In this document: in pieces, positions 1,283 to 11,908 of the stretch
Position numbering within the stretch: position 1 is the first letter of the stretch
Layout: each line of letters begins with the position of its first letter
Origin: Candidatus Erabacter solicola
Lineage (GTDB): Bacteria > Vulcanimicrobiota > Vulcanimicrobiia > Vulcanimicrobiales > Vulcanimicrobiaceae
Length of the DNA: 35,738 nt
Direction: 5' to 3'
NCBI GenBank assembly: GCA_003136895.1
Contig: PLDY01000068.1
Coordinates: 1-35,738 of the forward strand
The notes under the pieces: model-generated
What the model saw: only the letters and a program-made list of their open reading frames with translations
Databases searched by the model: none
What the model was told of the DNA's origin: nothing
Program-made: the position numbers and the translations under genes

Positions 1283-2251
1283 TTAACGCCGTGCCTTGTC
1301 TGTCAACCGCTTCCAGGTGAGCCGGCGACCGTCGGCGCGTTTCACAACGTCCGCAAAGCGCGGGCCGTCTTTTTGCTCGCGCGCATTGAAGCGACAAATC
1401 TGTTCGTCCAAGTAGCGATCCAGATGCTTCGGGCGCACCGAAATATAGGTCCCGCCGAGCGTCCGCTTCAAGACCGACCAGAAGTTTTCAATCGTATTTG
1501 TGTGGACCGATCCGCGCACGTATTCTACTGTGTGGTTCACCGTCGCGTGATACAGGAAGAACTCGTCCATGCGCTGGTACGCCTTGGCCGAATCGGTGTG
1601 CACGGTCGCGTCGTGGTGAACGTGACGACGCAGGATCGGAAGCAGCGTGTCCTTTTGGACGCTTGGCACGGTCATAGCGCGGACCTCGCCTTTGCGCCCG
1701 TCCTTGGGACGTTCGATCATACCGAACACTGCCGTCTTGGCTCCGGTGTCGCGCCATGCGCGCGGCGAGGTCACACGACGGACCTTGAGCGGTTTGTTTT
1801 CGTACATGCCGCCGATGAAAGTCTCGTCAGCTTCTACAATTCCGGTGAACTGCCGAAACTCTCCCGATCGCATAGCCTCGCGAATCCGGTGCAGCATGAA
1901 CCAGGCCGTGCGTTGCGTGACCTTGATTCCGCGCGCCAGCTCGTAGGACGAAATGCCGTTCCGGTTGCTTGCGATCAGCCACATGGCCGGGAGCCACTTG
2001 TCGAAGCCGATGGGCGAATCTTCGAAGATCGTCCCAACCTTGGCCGTAAACTGCCCCTTGCAGTCGTTGCAGTACCAGCGACGACGCTTGGGCATATAGG
2101 CGACCTTCACCGATCCACAGTCCAACGGGCAGGCAACGACGCCACCTGGCCAGCGCAACTCAACCCAAAAGTCATGGGCGGCCTGCGGATCGGCGAACTG
2201 CCGGGCGGCTTCGAGCATCGTTTCGGGGATCGGTTGCTGATCGCGTTTCAT
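1283..2251 (-). CDS. IS1595-family (ISXO2-like) transposase
   Basis: The 322-aa protein starts at ATG 2251, close to the right inverted repeat. The N-terminal third holds a zinc ribbon: a CPLDC pair around residues 40-45 and YCNDCKGQFT around 60-70. This is followed by a helix-turn-helix-like region (ISSYELARGIKVTQRTAWF). The ISXO2-like DDE-type domain shows VEADETFIGG (first Asp), VHTDSAKAY (second Asp) and HTNTIENFWSVLKR with its downstream Asn/Glu and Lys. These features are typical of IS1595 transposases, and the length fits the family. No frameshift or internal stop is present and both repeats are intact, so the element may still be active. Confidence 0.93.
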   Translation of the reverse strand: MKRDQQPIPETMLEAARQFADPQAAHDFWVELRWPGGVVACPLDCGSVKVAYMPKRRRWYCNDCKGQFTAKVGTIFEDSPIGFDKWLPAMWLIASNRNGISSYELARGIKVTQRTAWFMLHRIREAMRSGEFRQFTGIVEADETFIGGMYENKPLKVRRVTSPRAWRDTGAKTAVFGMIERPKDGRKGEVRAMTVPSVQKDTLLPILRRHVHHDATVHTDSAKAYQRMDEFFLYHATVNHTVEYVRGSVHTNTIENFWSVLKRTLGGTYISVRPKHLDRYLDEQICRFNAREQKDGPRFADVVKRADGRRLTWKRLTDKARR

Positions 2252-3125: not shown

Positions 3126-3512
3126 ATGGGATTCAATCTCGGGGGCTTGATCCAAGGCGGGGTGACCGGCCTCGCCACCGGCGGGCCAATCTCCGGTATC
3201 GCCGGCGCGGTCGCCGGAAGTCTCAGCGGCGGCGGCCCGAGCGGTGCGGGCAACATTCAGCCCAATCAAGATCCGACGCTCGGTTTGATGCAGACTGCCG
3301 ACAAGGGCTACGAGATGGCGCAACTCGGACTCAACATCGAGAATATGCGGCACAATCTCGACCTGCAGTGGCAGTCGACGATGTTCAATGAAGTCGAAGA
3401 CGAAAAGACCGAGCAGATGCGCGAGATGAACGTCTTACGCGACGTCGCGATGAAGCAACGCGAAGCCGACGTGGCCGTGCTCAAAGAGTTCATCCGCACG
3501 ATCAAGGATTAG
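3126..3512 (+). CDS. Glycine-rich N-terminus plus helical C-terminus, unknown (128 aa)
   Basis: The ATG at 3126 is preceded by GGGGAGAAACGAC. Residues 1-50 are a Gly/Ala/Ser-rich stretch with glycine-zipper spacing (GGLIQGGVTGLATGGP, GIAGAVAGSLSGG). The rest is predicted helical and charged (LGLMQTADKGYEMAQLGLN; LRDVAMKQREADVAVLKE). The combination of a membrane-inserting or oligomerising glycine zipper with a coiled-coil tail is seen in pore-forming and translocation proteins, but I cannot assign a family. The C-terminal segment MREMNVLRDVAMKQ recurs almost unchanged in the next gene, so the two probably contact each other or a common partner. The gap to the next start is only 6 bp, which suggests one operon with the transglycosylase. 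Confidence 0.65.
   Translation: MGFNLGGLIQGGVTGLATGGPISGIAGAVAGSLSGGGPSGAGNIQPNQDPTLGLMQTADKGYEMAQLGLNIENMRHNLDLQWQSTMFNEVEDEKTEQMREMNVLRDVAMKQREADVAVLKEFIRTIKD
3420..3451 (+). repeat. Copy 1 of a 32-bp repeat encoding REMNVLRDxA
   Basis: CGCGAGATGAACGTCTTACG and the following bases match 3747-3778 at about 28 of 32 positions, in the same reading frame. The rest of the two genes is far less similar, so this is either a conserved functional helix or a recent local duplication or gene conversion. Confidence 0.6.
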
Positions 3513-3518
3513 CGCAGC

Positions 3519-3833
3519 GTGATCACCGCCCTTGCCGGGGCGCCCGTTCCCGGGCCGCCGGCCGAACCGCTCGATGTCACCGCGGAGTCCGTACCGGATA
3601 CGTCCGCAACGTTAGCCGCAGAGATCGCGCGGCGTGCCGCGCAGTTGCTGGTTGACGAGCACGAAGCGGATACGGTTCGTCAAGTTCGGCTCGACCGTCT
3701 CAAGACCGAGTTCGATCTCGATCAGCAAGAACGCGCTGAGCTACTGCGCGAAATGAACGTCTTGCGCGACATGGCGATCGAGCAGCAGAAAAAGGATGAC
3801 GAGCTACTCAAGAAATGGATCGCGCTCATTTGA
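3519..3833 (+). CDS. Small helical protein, unknown (104 aa)
   Basis: The start is GTG 3519, 6 bp after the preceding stop, so translation is likely coupled. Residues 1-30 are Pro/Ala-rich (VPGPPAEPLDV). Residues 30-104 are charged and strongly helical, with a likely coiled coil (RLDRLKTEFDLDQQERAELL) running into LLREMNVLRDMAIEQQKKDD. The REMNVLRDxA block is shared with the preceding protein and is also conserved at the nucleotide level (3420-3451 against 3747-3778). No signal peptide, membrane helix or known domain is apparent. It looks like a structural or chaperone-type partner of its neighbour. Confidence 0.6.
   Translation: MITALAGAPVPGPPAEPLDVTAESVPDTSATLAAEIARRAAQLLVDEHEADTVRQVRLDRLKTEFDLDQQERAELLREMNVLRDMAIEQQKKDDELLKKWIALI
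3747..3778 (+). repeat. Copy 2 of the 32-bp repeat encoding REMNVLRDxA
   Basis: CGCGAAATGAACGTCTTGCG and following bases are the partner of 3420-3451, lying in the next gene at the same distance (about 60 bp) from its stop codon. Confidence 0.6.
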
Positions 3834-3834
3834 A

Positions 3835-3899
3835 GGCGTCATGCTCGCGGCAGGGCCCCGTCCCGCCGGTACGGAACCGGGGAGGTCGCGGCTGACGCC
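3835..3899 (+). ncRNA. Structured 65-nt segment immediately before tRNA-Ile
   Basis: The outer arms GGCGTCA (3835-3841) and TGACGCC (3893-3899) are perfectly complementary and enclose 51 nt. Inside, CCGGT-ACGGA-ACCGG forms a hairpin, CCCC/GGGG can extend it, and CGCGGC-like strands flank it. The result looks like a multi-stem domain closed by a 7-bp helix. It begins 2 bp after the upstream stop codon and ends exactly where tRNA-Ile begins. It could be a terminator-like 3' end of the upstream operon, a tRNA processing leader or a small RNA. No family was recognised. Confidence 0.35.
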
Positions 3900-3976
3900 G
3901 GGCCATTAGCTCAGTTGGTTAGAGCGCATGCTTGATAAGCATGAGGTCCCTGGTTCGAGACCAGGATGGCCCACCA
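3900..3976 (+). tRNA. tRNA-Ile(GAU) with encoded CCA
   Basis: The cloverleaf is complete. The acceptor GGGCCAT pairs with ATGGCCC, the D-arm is GCTCAGTTGGTTAGAGC, the anticodon loop is CTTGATAAG with GAT at 3934-3936, and the T-arm is CCTGGTTCGAGACCAGG. The discriminator A is at 3973, followed by a genomically encoded CCA (3974-3976). Confidence 0.97.
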
Positions 3977-4075
3977 TCCGTTCACGGTTTGCGGAACGTC
4001 ACCGCGACACACGGGCGGTTCGGTCTCAATGCATTCGCAGAAGGAGCCTGCGCTGCAGCCGTCATAGGGCTCGTG

Positions 4076-5497
4076 ATGGATGTCCCGCGGAGCTCGGAAG
4101 CAAGCGGCTCGCCGGGACTCACTCCGGTGGTGTTCGTCGCGATGCCCTTCGGCCGCAAGAGCGATCCGACCCGGACGTTCGAAATAGACTTCGACGACAT
4201 CTACGAACGCGCGATCAGGCCCGCCGTCGAGCACTTCGATGTCGACTGCATTCGTGCGGACAAAGAGCGCAGCGGCGGCGTGATCCACCTGGCGATGTTC
4301 GAGCGGTTGCTGCTTGCCGAAGTTGCGATCGTCGACGTCACGCTCTCGAATCCGAACGTCTTTTACGAGTTGGGCGTGCGTCACGGTGCTCGTCCGCGCT
4401 CGACGATCATCGTCGGTTCGGCCGGCGGATCGATGCCGTTCGATATCGCGATGATTCGCGCGCTCCCCTATCAATTGCACGACGGCCGGCTGGAAGACGC
4501 CGACGCGGCTGTCTTTGTCGAAGGGCTCATAGAGCGTCTGCGCTATGCGCTCGAAGAGATCGAAGCGAAGGACAGCCCGCTCTTCCAACTGATACCGGGG
4601 CTCCCGGAACAGTCGCTGCCGCACGAGATCACCGAGAGCTTTCGCGATCGCGCGCGGACGATCGACGGCATACGCGAACGACTCGAGAGTGCGCGGCACC
4701 TGGCCGACACAACAGAGGCGGTACGCCAAATCGGGGAGATCGAGCGCAGCTACCTCGCCGAAATCACCAAGGTGAATGCCGAACTCTTATTCGACGTCTA
4801 TCTCAGCTACCGCGACGTCAAGGCGTGGGACGAGATGATCGCGCTCGGGGAGCGTTCGCCGCCCTGGTTGCAGATGTCGGTACCGACACTGCACGAGCAG
4901 CTCGCGTTCGCGCTCAATCGGCGTAACGGTCCCGGCGATCGCGCCCGGGCGATCGCACTGCTCGAAGCGATTATCAAGAAGCAGGGCGATTCGCCCGAGA
5001 CCTCCTCGCTATTGGCCCGCGTCTACAAGGATGAATACGTTGCCGCGCTAGCCGGCGGCGAACGCTTGCGCGCCGGCGGTTCGCTCACCCGCGCGATCGA
5101 TCTCTACCGGCGCGGCTTCAACGCCGATCCGCGCGACTATTATCCCGGCGTCAATCTCGCAACTCTCTTGGCCTTGAAGGGCACACCCGAGGCCAAGAAC
5201 GAGCTTGCGCAGATCGTCCCGGCACTGACCTTCGCGCTGGGAAGGTTGGGCGGCCTCAACTCAAGCGACTATTGGCAACTGGCAACCGTCCTTGAGATCT
5301 CCGTTCTCGGCCGCGACGCCGATGGTGCGATGCGCGCTTTGGAGATAGTAGCGAGCCTCGACGAGCAGAAAACAAAGCCTTGGATGTTCGAGACGACCGC
5401 CAACAACATGAGATTGCTCCAAAGCGCCGGAGACTCGATCGATCAGGCGATGCTTGCGGAAGTCATTGCCGAGCTCGACCGGCGCGGCGGCGCGTAG
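4076..5497 (+). CDS. Deoxyribosyltransferase-like + TRAFs-binding (DUF4071) protein, ASK1-like
   Basis: The frame is open from inside the tRNA. The first plausible start is ATG 4076 (GTG 4073 is also possible), giving about 473 aa. Residues 15-130 form a Rossmann-like domain related to nucleoside 2-deoxyribosyltransferases (FVAMPFG, DFDDIYERAIRPA, EVAIVDVTLSNPNVFYELG). Residues about 225-470 match the TRAFs-binding/DUF4071 region of the eukaryotic stress kinases ASK1/MAP3K5: FALNRRNGPGDRARAIAL, ARVYKDEYVA, AIDLYRRGF, GVNLATLLALKG and LGRLGGLNSSDYW. No kinase domain is present. In ASK1 this region precedes the kinase and helps sense stress through TPR-like helices. Prokaryotic homologues have been linked by comparative genomics to immunity-type conflict systems. 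A role in sensing or processing a nucleotide is inference. It stands alone between a tRNA and a secreted protein. Confidence 0.8.
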   Translation: MDVPRSSEASGSPGLTPVVFVAMPFGRKSDPTRTFEIDFDDIYERAIRPAVEHFDVDCIRADKERSGGVIHLAMFERLLLAEVAIVDVTLSNPNVFYELGVRHGARPRSTIIVGSAGGSMPFDIAMIRALPYQLHDGRLEDADAAVFVEGLIERLRYALEEIEAKDSPLFQLIPGLPEQSLPHEITESFRDRARTIDGIRERLESARHLADTTEAVRQIGEIERSYLAEITKVNAELLFDVYLSYRDVKAWDEMIALGERSPPWLQMSVPTLHEQLAFALNRRNGPGDRARAIALLEAIIKKQGDSPETSSLLARVYKDEYVAALAGGERLRAGGSLTRAIDLYRRGFNADPRDYYPGVNLATLLALKGTPEAKNELAQIVPALTFALGRLGGLNSSDYWQLATVLEISVLGRDADGAMRALEIVASLDEQKTKPWMFETTANNMRLLQSAGDSIDQAMLAEVIAELDRRGGA

Positions 5498-5540
5498 CTC
5501 GCTTGCAGTATTGCGTCTTCCTATGGTGAAGCTTCGAGCC

Positions 5541-6365
5541 ATGACGACAGGCCGTTACGTTCGCCTCGGGCTCAGCTTGAGTCTCGTTTTCCTTGCGGTG
5601 CTGGCCAGCGGATCGATTGCGCAGGCAAGTCAATGTCCGATTGCGGTGTCAAATCTCGTGCCGATGCCCGATGGGAAACATTACGCGGCGATCATGCAAT
5701 CCACGGCTCAGGGGGCCGCCGATCTGCGCCTGAGCCTATACTCAGATGGCGCGACGTACGTCGTGACGTTCCCGATTGTCGTCTTCGATCGGCGGCTCGC
5801 GGATCTGGCCGATGGTGAGGTTCGACCGCGCCCGTTTACGGCTGCGCCGCTCTTCTTCACGCTTCCTCAGACGGACGCGCTACTAGCCGCCCGCACCGAT
5901 ATTGTCTCGGCCGTCGCCGCGCCGGTTTGCTCTCCGGAGTATCGATATTCGACAGTTTTGGAGCAGCGGCTCGATGCCAAATTCATGCCCTCTGCCGCTG
6001 CAGTATCTGAAAGTCAAGTTCTCGTCCAATTGTTCGGACGCGTGGCCGCCGCCAATGCAGCGCTTGTCGAAGCGAATGCCAAGCTTGATTGCGACGAGCA
6101 ATACGGTAAAGCCAAACTGGATAAGTTCGCACGCCCGTTCTATCCCGAGACGCTCGCCAACCACGCGGCCGGCACGGCACTGGTTGGAGTCGACCTCACG
6201 TCGTCCGGCGCAATCGAAAACGTGTCGCTTCTGAGGAGCGCCGGCAACCACTTCCTCGATCTGGCGGCGCTCAAGAGTGCGGCCGGCTCGATCTATCGCC
6301 CAGAATATTTCAGATGTCAGCCGACGGGCGGCCGTTACGTCCTCTCGATCCGACTTTCACCCTAG
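5541..6365 (+). CDS. Secreted protein with TonB C-terminal-like domain
   Basis: The preferred start is ATG 5541, because it gives a clean signal peptide (MTTGRYVRLGLSLSLVFLAV ending around SIAQAS) and has GGTGAAG upstream. ATG 5523 is an alternative. The mature protein is about 245 aa. Its middle portion matches no family I know. The last 75 residues fit the TonB C-terminal fold: FYPETLANHAAGTALVGVDL, SSGAIENVSLLRSAGNHFLD, then a final strand YVLSIRLSP. There is no N-terminal membrane anchor or proline-rich spacer, so it is a periplasmic TonB-C-like protein and not a true energy-transducing TonB. Cysteines at the mature N-terminus (SQCP), around residue 129, around 182 and near the end (FRCQP) may form disulfides. 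Confidence 0.75.
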   Translation: MTTGRYVRLGLSLSLVFLAVLASGSIAQASQCPIAVSNLVPMPDGKHYAAIMQSTAQGAADLRLSLYSDGATYVVTFPIVVFDRRLADLADGEVRPRPFTAAPLFFTLPQTDALLAARTDIVSAVAAPVCSPEYRYSTVLEQRLDAKFMPSAAAVSESQVLVQLFGRVAAANAALVEANAKLDCDEQYGKAKLDKFARPFYPETLANHAAGTALVGVDLTSSGAIENVSLLRSAGNHFLDLAALKSAAGSIYRPEYFRCQPTGGRYVLSIRLSP

Positions 6366-6375
6366 GTTCTAAGAT

Positions 6376-6600
6376 ATGCCGCTAGCAAATTCGTCGGGAC
6401 CGGAATGGTTGCGCGGAACCGAACTCGGCCGCCGCAGCGCGCCCGGCTGGCCAAATCTCATCGGCGAGATCTTTCGTTCGATTCGCTTGCTCTTCTCGGG
6501 GAGCCGGCGTCGCCCTAAAGCGCAACGCGAGGACGAGGGCGACATTGGAAGCCTCTCCGGCGGAAACGCAGAGCGTCTCGATGACGAACCGAAACTATAG
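6376..6600 (+). CDS. Possible small protein (74 aa), unknown
   Basis: The ORF starts 10 bp after the preceding stop (ATG 6376, MPLANSSGPEWLRGTELG) and contains one moderately hydrophobic stretch (LIGEIFRSIRLLFSG) followed by a charged tail. There is no good ribosome binding site and no recognisable domain. It fills an otherwise empty 240-bp gap and is on the same strand as its upstream neighbour. An ORF of this length can occur by chance in GC-rich DNA, so the call is tentative. Confidence 0.3.
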   Translation: MPLANSSGPEWLRGTELGRRSAPGWPNLIGEIFRSIRLLFSGSRRRPKAQREDEGDIGSLSGGNAERLDDEPKL

Positions 6601-6613
6601 TGCGGAGCGCGAC

Positions 6614-7102
6614 TCACTTCAGTTGCGTGTAGACGTAGACGGCGACGTCGTGGAGGTCTTGCTTCGAGAGTTGCCAGTGCGGCATGACGGGGTTGAGCAG
6701 ATGACTCTCGTTATCGACTCCGGTCGAAATCGCGCGGGCGAGCGAGTCGACGGTGTAGGGATGTTTTTGTGCGGTCACAATCGCTTTATGCCGAAGGTCC
6801 GCACTAACCGCGCCGCCTGAGAGATGCAGGCCGCCCGAGCCGTCGGCCCGGTGGCAAGCAGCACACGATTGATAGACCGTCGACGGCTGAGCCACGATCT
6901 GGACTGCGCTCAGATCCTTGCCGGTTTGAAAGATCGCGCGGCCGTTGGCGCCGGCACGCGTCGCGGCGATGCCGCCGGGTGACGCCAGCGTGACGGCTGT
7001 CGCAGCAGGCTGCGCCGAGTTATCGCGCGGAGCCGAGCATGCAGCCAGCGCGAGCAGGCCGGCCACGAGCCATCCTACATTCGAGGGCTTCATCTGATTC
7101 AT
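6614..7102 (-). CDS. c-type cytochrome lipoprotein
   Basis: The start ATG 7102 lies 9 nt downstream of GGAGG, better than the upstream TTG at 7111. The 162-aa protein begins with a lipoprotein signal sequence (WLVAGLLALAACSAPRD, lipobox LAAC). It has a single class I cytochrome c domain: heme-binding SCAACHRADGSGG (CxxCH) around residues 80-92 and the axial Met in LNPVMPHWQLS, then a final helix LHDVAVYVYTQLK. It would be a membrane-tethered monoheme electron carrier in the periplasm. No oxidase or dehydrogenase partner is adjacent. It is convergent with the upstream gene. Confidence 0.9.
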   Translation of the reverse strand: MNQMKPSNVGWLVAGLLALAACSAPRDNSAQPAATAVTLASPGGIAATRAGANGRAIFQTGKDLSAVQIVAQPSTVYQSCAACHRADGSGGLHLSGGAVSADLRHKAIVTAQKHPYTVDSLARAISTGVDNESHLLNPVMPHWQLSKQDLHDVAVYVYTQLK

Positions 7103-7214
7103 GAGCTGCAACCTCCGTTCGAATAGAGTCTACCCAAGATCGGTCGCGCACCTCCTGCCGGAGAGCGATGGAAAGGACTGCGCCGGCGCGAAGAAAAACG
7201 GCGACGGTCGACCT

Positions 7215-7290
7215 GGGGATGTAGCTCAGTTGGTAGAGCGCCAGCTTTGCAAGTTGGATGTCAGGAGTTCGAATCTCCTCATCTCCACCA
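7215..7290 (+). tRNA. tRNA-Ala(UGC) with encoded CCA
   Basis: The acceptor GGGGATG pairs with CATCTCC. The D-arm is GCTCAGTTGGTAGAGC, the anticodon loop CTTTGCAAG places TGC at 7248-7250, and the T-arm is AGGAGTTCGAATCTCCT. The discriminator A at 7287 is followed by encoded CCA. Confidence 0.97.
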
Positions 7291-7298
7291 CGACGAAC

Positions 7299-7330
7299 GG
7301 AAACGCCGGCAAGCGATTGCCGGCGTTTCC
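7299..7330 (+). terminator. Strong hairpin terminator after tRNA-Ala
   Basis: GGAAACGCCGGCAA pairs perfectly with TTGCCGGCGTTTCC around a GCGA tetraloop (14 bp) and is followed by TTCGTTTGGG. The hairpin is symmetrical and could also act on transcripts from the minus-strand gene ending at 7356, although no long T-run lies on that side. Confidence 0.8.
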
Positions 7331-7355
7331 TTCGTTTGGGTCGCGCGCGAGAGCG

Positions 7356-8087
7356 CTAGAGGAAGTGCCTCACCGAAGGCGTTTGGCAAACGCCGATCGA
7401 GTTTGAACCCTGGCTACACGGCGGTACCGTGATGATGTTCGTGATCGTCGTATGCACGTTGTGCTGCCACCACAGGACGATCGGGATAAACAGGAAGCCG
7501 AAGCCGCCGCCGCGCGCGACGACCGGCGCCGCTGCCACGACCACCGGGGCAGGCGCGAACTCCATTGGGGGAATGGGCGCAACGGGGGGCGGAGGCGGCG
7601 TAAAGATAACGGGCGTCTCCGGCGGCTGCGGAGGCTGCGGAGGCGGCGGGGCCGGCGGCACCGGCGCGAGCGCTACGCGACGAACGGGCGCGCGGTAAAT
7701 CCGGTGAACCGCGGCGACGACCGGCTTCACGACTTTCGTGCGCGAGACTGAGAGATTGCCGCAGACCTGTGGGACGTATACCGTTGCGCCGCTCGAAAGT
7801 TTGACTTTCCAGCCCATGACGCTCGCGGGAAGGACAGCCGAGCGCACGGCATAGACGCTGCCGTGGCGATTGCCCGCCATGACGTCGATCTTGTGAGGAA
7901 GCGTTACGTACAGCGCCTTACCGTCAAGGAGCGCGTTTCGGAACTCCTGATACTCTTTGTCGGACAGGCCGATCCGGCGCGCTGCATCGCCGAACAACTT
8001 CGCGTGCTCGCGTGTTGCGTTCCAAACCTCTTCGGCGTTGGCCGGTGGTGTCGTCATCATGTGGTCGACGTAGAGGTTGACTACCAT
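7356..8087 (-). CDS. Proline-rich protein of the EPS locus, unknown (243 aa)
   Basis: The ATG at 8087 follows GGGAGG at good spacing. Residues 1-75 are helical (ANAEEVWNATREHAKLFG, LSDKEYQEFRNALLDGKA). Residues 75-115 look like a small beta domain (GSVYAVRSAVLPA, GWKVKLSSGATVYVPQV). Residues 135-190 are extremely Pro/Ala-rich (PPAPPPPQPPQPPETP), typical of an extended spacer across the envelope. The C-terminal part has a hydrophobic patch (GFGFLFIPIVLWWQHN) that may be a membrane segment. No signal peptide is evident. A DosR-box-like palindrome lies about 100 bp upstream, so expression may follow the EPS genes. I do not recognise a family. Confidence 0.65.
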   Translation of the reverse strand: MVVNLYVDHMMTTPPANAEEVWNATREHAKLFGDAARRIGLSDKEYQEFRNALLDGKALYVTLPHKIDVMAGNRHGSVYAVRSAVLPASVMGWKVKLSSGATVYVPQVCGNLSVSRTKVVKPVVAAVHRIYRAPVRRVALAPVPPAPPPPQPPQPPETPVIFTPPPPPVAPIPPMEFAPAPVVVAAAPVVARGGGFGFLFIPIVLWWQHNVHTTITNIITVPPCSQGSNSIGVCQTPSVRHFL

Positions 8088-8182
8088 CCTAGTATGCCTC
8101 CCGGGAAAGACGCTTCGTGCATCGAGTTCATCATCTCAGTTATATGCCGAACGGATCGGACGGCACAGGGACCGACGCCGGG

Positions 8183-8983
8183 TCATTGGGGACCATAAGT
8201 CCCAACCGAGGCGGTGACGCCCGTGGCCATTACCGTCGCGGGCGGCGCCGGCGACGGGATCCGCCAGAGTTGCCCGGACGTGCGCAGGACCTCGAGGGTC
8301 CGCGCCCAGAGCTTGCGATATGAGATTCGGCCGGCTGCTTTGCGCCGGTGCTTGGGCCAAGCCAGGTGCGCGGGGATTTCCCGGACGCCGTGACCCTCCC
8401 GGAGCATCTCGGCGACGGCCCAGGAATTGAATTCTCCGTCCGGCTCCGCCTCGAAGAGTTGCCGCAGCACGCGGGCATCGTAGGCCCGAACCATGCCGGT
8501 GAACGTCGCCAGCCTTCCGTGTAAGCAGAGCGAAAGCCACCAGTTGGCCGTCCAGCTCGCCACGAGGCGAACGAAAGGGACGTTGCTGACCCGGCCGCCG
8601 GGCATATACGGCGAGGCCATGATGCAGGCCGCACCGGTCCGGTAGAGGTGCTCGACCATCGGCTCGATCGTCGCCGGCTCGTAACTAAGATCGGCGTCGA
8701 GGACGACGACGTTCGGCAGTTGGGCCGCTTGCGCGCCGGTGCGGATCGCAGCGACCATCCCCTGGTTCTTCGCGTGGCGCACCAAGTGCAACGCCCCGGG
8801 ATGCTCGCGGCTGAACGTCTCAACCAGGTCGGCCGTTTGATCCGTGCTGCCGTCGTCGACGATGATCAGCTCGGAGCGGTAGCGACTCTTGAGTCCAGTC
8901 AGGTACGTATCGAGGCGATCCAGCGCCCCGCGCAGAGCCGGCCCCTCGTTGAAGACCGGGACCACGACCGAAAAAGAATTCAT
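8183..8983 (-). CDS. GT2 glycosyltransferase, dolichol-phosphate-mannose-synthase-like
   Basis: The start is ATG 8983, preceded by AAGGCAGCA. ATG 8995 is possible but has no Shine-Dalgarno. The 266-aa GT-A fold shows SVVVPVFNEG, ELIIVDDGSTDQTADLVE, the nucleotide-sugar/metal motif VVLDADLSYEPATI and a GRLATFTGMVRAYDARVL region. There are no C-terminal membrane helices, so it is a soluble or peripheral enzyme that probably transfers a sugar from a nucleotide donor to polyprenyl phosphate or a lipid-linked glycan. It is divergent from the initiating sugar transferase and shares with it a 146-bp control region holding DosR-like sites. Confidence 0.88.
   Translation of the reverse strand: MNSFSVVVPVFNEGPALRGALDRLDTYLTGLKSRYRSELIIVDDGSTDQTADLVETFSREHPGALHLVRHAKNQGMVAAIRTGAQAAQLPNVVVLDADLSYEPATIEPMVEHLYRTGAACIMASPYMPGGRVSNVPFVRLVASWTANWWLSLCLHGRLATFTGMVRAYDARVLRQLFEAEPDGEFNSWAVAEMLREGHGVREIPAHLAWPKHRRKAAGRISYRKLWARTLEVLRTSGQLWRIPSPAPPATVMATGVTASVGTYGPQ
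8186..8205 (-). promoter_or_regulatory. DosR-box-like palindrome, site 1
   Basis: The plus strand reads TTGGGGACCATAAGTCCCAA, close to the 20-bp mycobacterial DosR consensus (GGGACTWWAGTCCC core) but with one extra base in the spacer. It overlaps the last codons of the GT2 gene and lies about 100 bp upstream of the proline-rich protein, its likely target. Three related sites occur in the locus. Confidence 0.5.
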
Positions 8984-9044
8984 TGCTGCCTTCATGGTAT
9001 CGGTCGCGCCGATAGAAGAATACGGGCGTTGGGGGCAGCCGGGC

Positions 9045-9058
9045 GGGACTAAGGTCCT
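9045..9058 (+). promoter_or_regulatory. DosR-box-like site 2 in the divergent EPS promoter
   Basis: GGGACTAAGGTCCT: half-sites GGGACT and GGTCCT are separated by AA, which is the exact 14-bp DosR spacing. It lies 72 bp upstream of the sugar transferase ATG (9130) and 62 bp upstream of the GT2 ATG (8983), so it could control both directions. Confidence 0.5.
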
Positions 9059-9059
9059 A

Positions 9060-9081
9060 GGCTCAATGCCCAAATTGAGCC
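9060..9081. promoter_or_regulatory. 8-bp inverted repeat in the divergent EPS promoter
   Basis: GGCTCAAT and ATTGAGCC are perfectly complementary around GCCCAA. The repeat sits between DosR-like site 2 and a weaker GGGACT half-site, and could be a second operator or a hairpin in the leader. Confidence 0.45.
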
Positions 9082-9086
9082 CGAAT

Positions 9087-9100
9087 GGGACTGCGACCGG
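9087..9100 (+). promoter_or_regulatory. Weak DosR-like half-site 2b
   Basis: GGGACTGCGACCGG has a perfect left half (GGGACT) but a degenerate right half. It lies 42 bp downstream of site 2 (four helical turns), an arrangement that recalls paired DosR sites. A TACGAT hexamer at 9115-9120 could be the -10 of the sugar transferase promoter. Confidence 0.3.
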
Positions 9101-9129
9101 ATGACGCGTCCTGGTACGATTACGGAGTC

Positions 9130-10581
9130 ATGGAGACGCTACAGCCGAACGGACTTGCGAGCAGCCTTGGGTATGCTCTTCCACAGGTCAAGCTGCGGCA
9201 ATCGCCCGCAGCGTATGCCGGCTGGCAGCGTGTGCTGCTCCTCGCGAGCGACCTGTTCGTACTCGTAACGGCGGGAACACTGGCCCTGTCGCTTCGGCAC
9301 GTTCCCCTAGCCGATCTCCTCGAGCGCTCGGACGTCGTCATGGCGCTCGCCTTCGCGGCCACGTCGTCGCTCTTGATTAACGAACGCGTCGGCCTCTACC
9401 GGGCCTCATTCAGCGGCAATGCGCGCAATCAGATCTACGGCGCATTTGCGGCATCCGCGATGGGCATCGTCCCGCCGCTGCTTATTCTGCTGTTGCTCCC
9501 GTCGCTTTCACCATTTCGGAGCGCTCTAGCGCTCGCAGCGCTCTTCTCGGCCACCGGTCTATCGGCCACGCGTTTCGTGTTCCACGCTTTACGCGACCGA
9601 GTCGCTCCGCCCAACGCGCGACGCATTGCGATCGTAGGAAAGCCCGAACGGGTCGACTTACTCCCCGGCGATCTGTCCCTGACCAGCCGCGATTCTATCT
9701 TGCGTCTGCCCATTGTGCGCTTCGACGAGGAGATGAATGAAGCTCTGCAGGACGGTGACCTGCAACAGCTGCAATGGTTGCAGAATGCGATAGCGTGGAA
9801 CTGCGACACCCTCATCGTGACCGAAGCGCTTCCGCCTTCGGTCATGCCGGCGATCCTGCGCGTCACCGAGGCACGCGGCATCAAACTCGCTTTTGCGCCG
9901 TTACGTCTGCGGCCGCACGCCTGCGACTTCCGCGTCCATCGCGATGGCGGAGTTGCTCTGCTCTATCCGAGCAGCCTTGCGATCTGCTCGCGCGGAGTCG
10001 GCCTGCTGCGCCGCGTCTTCGATCTGGCGATCGTGATGCCGGCGCTGATCGTGCTGGCGCCGCTGCTGTTGACGATCGCGTTGCTCGTCATGCTGGACTC
10101 GGGTGCGCCGATCTTTTACCGCCAGACTCGCGTCGGGCGCTATGGCAAAGAGTTTCAGATCCTCAAGTTCCGCACGATGAGTCAGGATGCCGAGAAGCAA
10201 ACCGGTCCGACGTGGGTTCAGGCCGGCGACGCGCGTGTGACGCGTCTCGGACGCCTTCTGCGCCGCTTAAGCCTCGACGAGTTGCCGCAGTTGGTCAACG
10301 TGCTGCGCGGCGAAATGTCGATCGTCGGGCCGCGTCCGGAACGCCCCTTCTACGTCGAGCGCTTTCGCGCAATTCTGCCGCGCTACGACGAGCGTCACCT
10401 CGTTCGTCCCGGCATCACCGGCTGGTCGCACCTCAATATGCGGCGCGATGTCGTCGACACGTCGGCGATCGGCGAGCGCTTGAGCTACGACCTGTTCTAT
10501 CTCGAAAACTGGTCGATCTTCTTCGATGCGACGATCGTTTTCAAGACGGCGGCCGAGGTCTTCTTTCACAAGGCCGCCTGA
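9130..10581 (+). CDS. Polyprenyl-phosphate sugar-1-phosphate transferase (EPS initiation)
   Basis: The probable start is ATG 9130, giving about 483 aa. The N-terminal half has several membrane helices (VLLLASDLFVLVTAGTLALS and a long hydrophobic block around 9440-9560) and a CoA-binding-like cytoplasmic region. The C-terminal 180 residues are a bacterial sugar transferase domain: a membrane helix LAIVMPALIVLAPLLLTIAL, FYRQTRVGRYGKEFQILKFR, FRTMSQDAE, LSLDELPQLVNVLRGEMS, IVGPRPERPF and RPGITGWSHL. The enzyme moves a sugar-1-phosphate from UDP-sugar to polyprenyl phosphate to start repeat-unit assembly at the inner membrane. The architecture is that of WbaP/EpsE-type proteins. The substrate sugar cannot be read from sequence. 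The flippase follows 16 bp downstream. Confidence 0.93.
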   Translation: METLQPNGLASSLGYALPQVKLRQSPAAYAGWQRVLLLASDLFVLVTAGTLALSLRHVPLADLLERSDVVMALAFAATSSLLINERVGLYRASFSGNARNQIYGAFAASAMGIVPPLLILLLLPSLSPFRSALALAALFSATGLSATRFVFHALRDRVAPPNARRIAIVGKPERVDLLPGDLSLTSRDSILRLPIVRFDEEMNEALQDGDLQQLQWLQNAIAWNCDTLIVTEALPPSVMPAILRVTEARGIKLAFAPLRLRPHACDFRVHRDGGVALLYPSSLAICSRGVGLLRRVFDLAIVMPALIVLAPLLLTIALLVMLDSGAPIFYRQTRVGRYGKEFQILKFRTMSQDAEKQTGPTWVQAGDARVTRLGRLLRRLSLDELPQLVNVLRGEMSIVGPRPERPFYVERFRAILPRYDERHLVRPGITGWSHLNMRRDVVDTSAIGERLSYDLFYLENWSIFFDATIVFKTAAEVFFHKAA

Positions 10582-10597
10582 CCAACGCGACGATCCG

Positions 10598-11908
10598 GTG
10601 AGCGTTCCGAAACGCTCCCTGACGCGTCTATCGCTCAACACCTTCGCGAATATTGTGATCGGCATGGTCGCGCAGATCGCGGCCGGAATCGCGGTCGCTC
10701 GGATCCTCGGGCCGGCGAATAAAGGCATCATTACCTACGCCGGATACTTGCTCGTCTTCGCCGTCACGCTCGCCGACGGCATCCGCGACGCGATCTCGTA
10801 TCAGATCGGCAAGCGCGGACTGCCGGCAAGGGACGTATGGTCTGCCGCTCTGCGGCTCATCGCCGTAGCCGGGCTCGTAGGCTCCCTAGTCTTTATCGCG
10901 CTCGCCTGGTTCTGGCCGCTCGAGCGCGCGGCGTTCGTAGCGGCCGCAATCGCCTTCGCGTTCGCGGTCTATTTGCAGAGCGTCAATTGTCTGTATCAAA
11001 TATTCCACCGCGTCGAACGCATCAACCTGACGAACTCACTGACGGTCGGCGCCGGAGCGCCGCTGATCACGCTGCTGCTTCTCCTCGTATGGCACGTCGG
11101 CGTTCCGATCGTGCTCGGTGTCTGGGTCGCCGCGTACGTCGTCGCAGCGGTATGGAATTCGTTCGGGCTCAAGGCGATGCTCGGCGCTAAGATTTCCGGG
11201 ACGAATCTCGCCCCGCTCGTTCGTGAGCAAATTGGTTTCGGAGTCAAAGCGGCGCTCTCGTCAACCCTTGCGTTCCTGGCCTTGCGAGTCGACGTCTTCA
11301 TCGTAGCCGCCATCATGTCGGCGGCGTCACTCGGCGTTTATACGCTCGCGCTTGCCGCAGGCGAACTTATGTGGGTGTTCAGCCGGTCGCTGCTGTGGGC
11401 TTCCACCGGGCGAATCGCAACCGATCGGCACGAAGATGCCGTCGCATTAGCCGCTCGCGTCAGCCGCACGTCGCTCGCATTACATTTTGCGGTGGGGGCC
11501 GCGCTCTTCGCCGCTGGGCCCGCGTTGATCGACCTCGTCTATGGCGGTCGTTTCAGCGGCGCGGGCCCGGTCTTGCGAATTCTGCTTCCGGGCCTGGTTC
11601 TCTACGGCGCCGACGGGGCGCTGTCGTACTTCATCGCCGTTCGCGCGGGCCGGCCCGGGCTTCTGCTGGGCTTCCAAAGTATTACCCTCGCGGCTTGCGG
11701 CGCGCTGACGTATGCCGGCGTCCTCCGCTTCGGCATGGTTGGTGCGGCATGGGCGGACACCATCGCATACGTGCTCGCTTTCGCGCTGAAAGCCGGCTTC
11801 TTCGTCAGATTGACCGGCGCGGCGCCGCTCGATATCTTGCTCGCGCGGCCCTCGGATATTCCGTCTGGGCTACGGACGCGGCTGCGACAGATTCTTCGGA
11901 AGACCTGA
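10598..11908 (+). CDS. Polysaccharide flippase (Wzx-like, MOP/MATE superfamily)
   Basis: Start GTG 10598 follows the sugar transferase stop by 16 bp. The frame extends upstream, but only within the previous gene. The 436-aa product has about 12 membrane helices with the typical N-terminal signature SLNTFANIVIGMVAQIAAG and ARILGPANKGIITYAGY. It would flip undecaprenyl-linked repeat units across the inner membrane for Wzy-dependent polymerisation. The last 39 bp overlap the end of the convergent GT-C gene, an unusually long convergent overlap. Confidence 0.9.
   Translation: MSVPKRSLTRLSLNTFANIVIGMVAQIAAGIAVARILGPANKGIITYAGYLLVFAVTLADGIRDAISYQIGKRGLPARDVWSAALRLIAVAGLVGSLVFIALAWFWPLERAAFVAAAIAFAFAVYLQSVNCLYQIFHRVERINLTNSLTVGAGAPLITLLLLLVWHVGVPIVLGVWVAAYVVAAVWNSFGLKAMLGAKISGTNLAPLVREQIGFGVKAALSSTLAFLALRVDVFIVAAIMSAASLGVYTLALAAGELMWVFSRSLLWASTGRIATDRHEDAVALAARVSRTSLALHFAVGAALFAAGPALIDLVYGGRFSGAGPVLRILLPGLVLYGADGALSYFIAVRAGRPGLLLGFQSITLAACGALTYAGVLRFGMVGAAWADTIAYVLAFALKAGFFVRLTGAAPLDILLARPSDIPSGLRTRLRQILRKT

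What the first reader, a model, noticed from the sequence alone, without database searches (positions are those of the whole stretch)
4076..5497. Bacterial ASK1-like sensor module: deoxyribosyltransferase-like domain plus TRAFs-binding region, without a kinase
The C-terminal 250 residues match the eukaryotic MAP3K5/ASK1 regulatory region at many motif positions (FALNRRNGPGDRA, ARVYKDEY, AIDLYRRGF, GVNLATLL, LGRLGGL..YW). The N-terminus has the NxxVFYELG-type signature of nucleoside deoxyribosyltransferase-like folds. Established knowledge: DUF4071/TRAFs-binding regions precede the kinase domain in ASK1, and prokaryotic relatives have been discussed as immune or conflict components. Inference: a stress or nucleotide-signal sensor that here acts alone beside a tRNA gene and may be of defensive or mobile origin.
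Basis: partly seen in the sequence, partly recalled or inferred. Interest (0 to 1): 0.8.

Follow-up and report, generated by a model that had tools for sequence, protein, structure and literature searches.

The report
Bacterial ASK1-like nucleotide-hydrolase/TPR immune protein
This bacterial gene encodes the same two-domain sensor front end as the human stress kinase ASK1, without the kinase and with its catalytic glutamate intact, and its relatives sit beside bacterial immune-signalling genes, so it most likely belongs to a nucleotide-signal anti-virus system rather than acting alone.

Summary
Window 4076-5497(+) encodes 473 aa matching Pfam MAP3K_TRAF_bd (E 2e-48) and TPR-S (E 2e-22). Human ASK1 is the best PDB hit by sequence (E 1e-20) and by fold (8qgy, E 7e-12, spanning both domains; AlphaFold pLDDT 87.8). 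The N-terminal domain belongs to the DNPH1/nucleoside-deoxyribosyltransferase (DRHyd) class. The predicted catalytic Glu98 (YELG) is invariant in 92 unique relatives but is His in ASK1. No kinase or PH domain is present.

'Acts alone' is not supported. Plasmid relatives usually neighbour Thoeris-type TIR (ThsB_TIR) and/or SLATT genes. In the window's own phylum, relatives lie in or beside clusters with a SLOG-SLATT two-TM protein, a patatin phospholipase and a CHASE2-TIR protein. The window's genome carries that four-gene cluster on another contig (C58). All 10 phylum genomes with the full-length gene also carry SLOG-SLATT, against 36 of 149 overall.

Best reading: a catalytic or sensor component of a nucleotide/NAD-signal abortive-infection system; substrate and ligand unknown. 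Bacterial origin of ASK parts is already published, so this is a member of a known kind. The useful new point: this clade is ASK1-like yet apparently catalytic, with a named partner cluster.

The parts
4076..5497 (+). DRHyd-TPR-S protein (ASK1 TBD + TPR-like), 473 aa
4124..4555 (+). N-terminal alpha/beta domain (residues 17-160), DNPH1/NDT-like (DRHyd)
   Evidence: and AlphaFold model
4349..4375 (+). NPNVFYELG motif (residues 92-100); predicted catalytic Glu98 is codon 4367-4369
   Evidence: invariant in 92 unique domains; aligns with the DNPH1 GYELG motif; His in ASK1
4622..5488 (+). all-helical TPR region (residues 183-471), matches the ASK1 central regulatory region
   Evidence: 5ulm rmsd 3.4 over 276 columns
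4826..5170 (+). TPR-S (PF20308) match, residues 251-365
   Evidence: E 1.9e-22
3900..3976 (+). tRNA-Ile(GAT) 99 bp upstream; neighbour, no evidence that it is part of the system

Best explanation
The gene encodes a bacterial DRHyd-TPR-S protein: an N-glycosidase-type alpha/beta domain of the DNPH1/NDT class, with its catalytic glutamate, joined to an ASK1-type TPR sensor/scaffold. Shown here: homology to both ASK1 N-terminal domains by sequence and fold, the conserved catalytic signature, absence of a kinase, and association of relatives with TIR, SLATT, SLOG-SLATT and patatin genes. Inferred: it works within a nucleotide/NAD-derived-signal immune system. The TPR domain senses infection or binds a partner or ligand, this switches the DRHyd domain on nucleotides (NAD+, a (d)NMP or a TIR product), and the outcome is coupled to membrane effectors (SLOG-SLATT two-TM protein, patatin phospholipase), stopping phage growth by dormancy or cell death. 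In this genome the partners are predicted to be the CHASE2-TIR / FecR-TPR / SLOG-SLATT / patatin cluster on contig C58, acting in trans.
For: Pfam and PDB matches. Fold match to 8qgy over 466 columns and to 5ulm at 3.4 A, model pLDDT 87.8. E98, Y97, N92, N94, R60 and D123 invariant in 92 unique domains. DNPH1 match at E 3e-4. ThsB_TIR or TIR_2 neighbours on plasmids and in Polyangiaceae; DUF4231/SLATT neighbours. In-phylum linkage to SLOG-SLATT, patatin and CHASE2-TIR. G000 C58 cluster. Co-occurrence with SLOG-SLATT 10/10 vs 36/149, p 2e-7 by genome, 2e-5 by genus; control ThsB_TIR 3/10 vs 18/149, p 0.10.
Against: No activity data; substrate and ligand unknown. In this genome the gene is not linked to the C58 cluster as assembled, and contig ends do not overlap. 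Several relatives (L021, L022, L025, L031) also have no recognisable partner adjacent. Genus-level counts only partly correct for shared ancestry. SLOG-SLATT clusters exist without this gene in 26 genomes, so it is not obligatory for them.
Confidence: 0.58

Rival explanations
1. Signal terminator or regulator: the DRHyd domain hydrolyses the nucleotide signal made by TIR partners, or restrains it, acting as an off-switch rather than an effector.
For: TIR genes are the commonest neighbours; the DNPH1 class hydrolyses small nucleotide monophosphates (established knowledge); SLOG-SLATT/patatin/TIR clusters exist without it, as expected of an accessory part.
Against: No ligand evidence; the window's genome has no ThsB-type TIR, only the CHASE2-TIR protein was seen.
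Confidence: 0.17
2. Stand-alone stress or nucleotide-pool sensor, unrelated to the C58 cluster.
For: No immune neighbour in the window; several relatives also look solo.
Against: Partners are adjacent in many relatives, and co-occurrence with SLOG-SLATT is complete in 10 genomes.
Confidence: 0.15
3. Catalytically dead scaffold like ASK1, with the DRHyd domain used only for protein contacts.
For: The ASK1 N-domain works as a thioredoxin-binding/dimer contact domain (PMC10972558).
Against: E98 and its companion residues are invariant here across 92 unique domains, whereas ASK1 has His at that position.
Confidence: 0.1

Closest known systems
ASK1/MAP3K5 N-terminal half (thioredoxin-binding domain + TPR central regulatory region; PDB 8qgy, 5ulm)
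   Same: Same two-domain order and fold; 27% identity over 250 TPR-region residues; fold E 7e-12.
   Different: No PH, kinase, coiled-coil or SAM domain; catalytic Glu kept where ASK1 has His.
Bacterial 'TRAFs-binding domain-containing proteins' (PF13281/PF20308) of plasmids
   Same: Same architecture, 38-40% identity in Rhizobium/Agrobacterium/Aliarcobacter plasmids, conserved Glu.
   Different: Plasmid copies are mostly linked to TIR and/or DUF4231 genes; the window copy is not. The ThsB-adjacent clade (tested with L129) is too distant from ASK1 to be found by phmmer.
DNPH1/Rcl and nucleoside 2-deoxyribosyltransferases
   Same: Profile match E 3e-4 with the YELG glutamate aligned; T. brucei NDT E 0.7.
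   Different: Those are stand-alone small enzymes; substrate here unknown; PF05014 itself is not hit.
Thoeris (ThsA/ThsB) and CBASS (TIR or patatin effectors)
   Same: Relatives adjoin ThsB_TIR genes; PADLOC matches the N-domain to a TIR effector model at E 3e-9 and the C58 patatin to phospholipase effector models at E 3e-41.
   Different: No ThsB or ThsA in the window or adjacent; no CD-NTase was seen in the neighbourhoods examined (not searched for genome-wide).

Membership tests
MAP3K_TRAF_bd (PF13281) | Score over the Pfam gathering cut-off (24.1 bits) | tested here: met
   165.6 bits, E 2.1e-48
TPR-S (PF20308) | Score over cut-off (27.6 bits) | tested here: met
   80.2 bits
ASK family kinase (MAP3K5/6/15) | Protein kinase domain and PH domain after the TPR region | tested here: not met
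   Protein ends after the TPR helices; no kinase match
ASK family kinase (MAP3K5/6/15) | TBD-TPR regulatory module fold | tested here: met
   Foldseek 8qgy E 7e-12, 466 columns
DRHyd / DNPH1-NDT superfamily | Rossmannoid alpha/beta domain with catalytic Glu in a YELG-type motif | tested here: met
   Profile match to DNPH1 E 3e-4; E98 invariant; alpha/beta model
DRHyd / DNPH1-NDT superfamily | N-glycosidase/hydrolase activity | not testable with these tools
   needs biochemistry
DRHyd-ASK (PF20309) | Match to the Pfam DRHyd-ASK model | tested here: inconclusive
   No match in G000, but the search rang in no control genome; 36-position model
Thoeris | ThsB TIR gene adjacent to a ThsA effector gene | tested here: not met
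   No TIR or ThsA next to the gene; no PF08937 match in G000
SLOG-SLATT/patatin/TIR conflict cluster of this phylum | Gene lies in the cluster | tested here: not met
   Cluster is on C58, gene on C55; linked only in relatives such as G041, G060 and G070
SLOG-SLATT/patatin/TIR conflict cluster of this phylum | Anti-phage activity | not testable with these tools
   needs a phage challenge

The most novel reading that the evidence does not exclude
The window's clade is a living bacterial counterpart of the ASK1 core in a catalytically active state, working in trans with a five-component system (CHASE2-TIR, FecR-TPR, SLOG-SLATT, patatin, DRHyd-TPR-S). ASK1 would then be a bacterial nucleotide-hydrolysing immune sensor that lost catalysis and gained a kinase output.
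Probability: 0.3. Interest if true: 0.75.

Novelty: new member of a known kind. Interest (0 to 1): 0.5.

Why it matters
ASK1 is a major human stress kinase; its N-terminal domain is known as a thioredoxin-binding contact domain, with no nucleotide chemistry that I know of. A close bacterial relative that keeps the catalytic glutamate, with identified candidate partner genes, makes it directly testable whether the ASK1 sensor began as a nucleotide-hydrolysing immune enzyme and what ligand its TPR region evolved to read.

Tried and rejected
Mobile insertion at the tRNA: no duplicated tRNA 3' end in the window, native GC/GC3, and the downstream neighbour is not syntenic in relatives, so no empty-site comparison was possible. 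Alternative N-termini in L026/L027 (about 165-200 extra residues) look like out-of-frame overlap ahead of the true start, not domains. The single-sequence AlphaFold model (pLDDT 46) was discarded. A direct Thoeris assignment was rejected: G000 has no ThsB_TIR match. Joining C55 and C58 by end overlap found nothing. Rooting ASK1 inside the bacterial tree is unresolved (support 56, long branch, one eukaryotic sequence). Viral-contig searches for further full-length homologues gave only L033. The key 2015 NAR paper (Burroughs et al.) is not in the library.

Full report
Observation. The ORF at 4076-5497(+) encodes 473 residues. It matches Pfam MAP3K_TRAF_bd (E 2.1e-48, residues 96-454) and TPR-S (E 1.9e-22, residues 251-365). 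By phmmer the best solved relative is human ASK1 (8qgy, E 1.2e-20; 5ulm, E 9e-20) over residues 200-442, with FALNRRN.PGDRA almost letter for letter. A profile of 14 relatives raises this to E 4e-34. It is the only copy in the genome.

Structure. The alignment-based AlphaFold model has mean pLDDT 87.8 and pTM 0.76: an alpha/beta domain (about 17-160) followed by paired helices to the end. Foldseek ranks ASK1 first (8qgy_A, E 7e-12, 466 alignment columns, i.e. both TBD and TPR regions) and then the isolated central regulatory region (5ulm, rmsd 3.4 over 276 columns). Among viral models the top hit is annotated CMP/hydroxymethyl-CMP hydrolase. The global rmsd to 8qgy is large (15 A), which I read as a different inter-domain angle; the helical part alone superposes well.

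N-terminal domain. A profile of this domain finds DNPH1/Rcl at E 3e-4 and T. brucei nucleoside 2-deoxyribosyltransferase at E 0.7, with YELG aligned to the YELG of DNPH1. E98, Y97, N92, N94, R60 and D123 are invariant in 92 unique relatives, including short phage-borne versions. Human ASK1 has FYHLG at this place, so the glutamate that is the nucleophile in the DNPH1/NDT class (established knowledge) is kept here and lost in ASK1. Catalysis is inferred, not shown.

Distribution and neighbours elsewhere. Plasmids hold 67 records with relatives, many already annotated 'TRAFs-binding domain-containing protein'. Next to them are ThsB_TIR-type TIR genes (Pseudomonas, E. coli IncP, Acinetobacter, Klebsiella, Lactiplantibacillus, Pediococcus), TIR_2 genes (Agrobacterium leguminum, Vibrio) and DUF4231/SLATT genes (Agrobacterium, Rhizobium, E. 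coli, Klebsiella) (Pfam check of a subset). The nearest relative from outside the window's phylum (Polyangiaceae, 53%) has a ThsB_TIR gene directly upstream.

Neighbours in the window's phylum. In G070 the order is DRHyd-TPR-S, SLOG-SLATT, patatin, overlapping head to tail. In G041/G060 it is SLOG-SLATT, DRHyd-TPR-S, CHASE2-TIR, FecR-TPR, and a second copy lies about 4 bp downstream of a patatin gene. In G068 and G003 the partners are within about 2-5 kb. Other genomes have SLOG-SLATT, often with patatin and TIR plus nSTAND1 proteins, but no DRHyd-TPR-S. The SLOG assignment rests on weak DprA/ShosA matches and the VGVTGHRD motif; the SLATT assignment on weak Pfam matches and two or more hydrophobic segments.

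The window's own genome. The immediate neighbours are an IS1595 transposase, an SLT protein, small ORFs, a TonB_C protein and a cytochrome c, none immune. But contig C58 carries CHASE2-TIR (about 71% identical to G041's), FecR-TPR, SLOG-SLATT and patatin in a row (L231 3751-10873). No ThsB_TIR was found. The contigs could not be joined by their ends, so 'in trans' means as assembled.

Co-occurrence. All 10 phylum genomes with a full-length DRHyd-TPR-S gene also have SLOG-SLATT, against 36 of 149 (hypergeometric p 2e-7; by genus 6 of 6 against 14 of 70, p 2e-5; within the family 8e-5); patatin 8 of 10 against 21 of 149. The control family ThsB_TIR shows no clear link (3 of 10 against 18 of 149, p 0.10), and ThsB_TIR against SLOG-SLATT gives p 0.45. 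Five of these genomes (G000, G030, G061, G075, G076) have the two genes on different contigs. The SLOG-SLATT alignment was built from five of these genomes, which favours detection there, but the matches in the other genomes are strong too (G000 E 2e-193) and the window genome was not in the alignment. Genus counting reduces but does not remove shared ancestry.

Relation to ASK1. Detectability of ASK1 falls from the window's clade (E 1e-20) to the Rhizobium clade (E 2e-9) to the ThsB-adjacent plasmid clade (not found with L129); identity in the TPR region is 22-29%, 18-20% and 12-18%. A tree with one ASK1 sequence does not place it reliably (support 56).

What is known. The bacterial origin of ASK-signalosome components is stated in PMC8195603, citing Burroughs 2015, which I could not read. 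DRHyd domains are described there and in PMC9503650 as NAD/nucleotide-processing components of conflict systems. The ASK1 TBD-TPR structure is from PMC10972558. So the kind is known; the partner cluster in this phylum and the intact glutamate in the ASK1-like clade are what I could add, without being able to check that they are unreported.

Verdict. Homology and architecture are near certain. A role in a nucleotide-signal immune system is likely; the in-trans partnership with C58 is plausible; substrate and direction of signalling are open.

Noticed in passing
G000:C58 (locus L231) 3751-10873: Four-gene cluster CHASE2-TIR, FecR-TPR, SLOG-SLATT two-TM protein and patatin in the window's genome; related modular clusters with TIR + nSTAND1 recur across the phylum (L023, L232, L235, L236, L239, L249).
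   Followed up: partly
window 3126-3512 and 3519-3833 (+): Two adjacent small ORFs share a repeated motif (REMNVLRD(V/M)A) just upstream of the tRNA-Ile, after an SLT-domain protein; no Pfam match.
   Followed up: no
window 1283-2251 (-): IS1595-family transposase with zinc ribbon near the contig end.
   Followed up: no
L034-L112, and Streptococcus/Staphylococcus phage records: Many temperate phages carry short (about 170-400 aa) DRHyd proteins with the invariant YE motif and no full ASK1-like TPR match; annotated as hypothetical proteins in the phage records seen.
   Followed up: partly
L015, L016, L128: Rhizobiaceae plasmid islands beside the homologue hold TIR, 7-cyano-7-deazaguanine synthase-like, DNA lyase-like and carbohydrate-kinase genes in a conserved order.
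   Followed up: no
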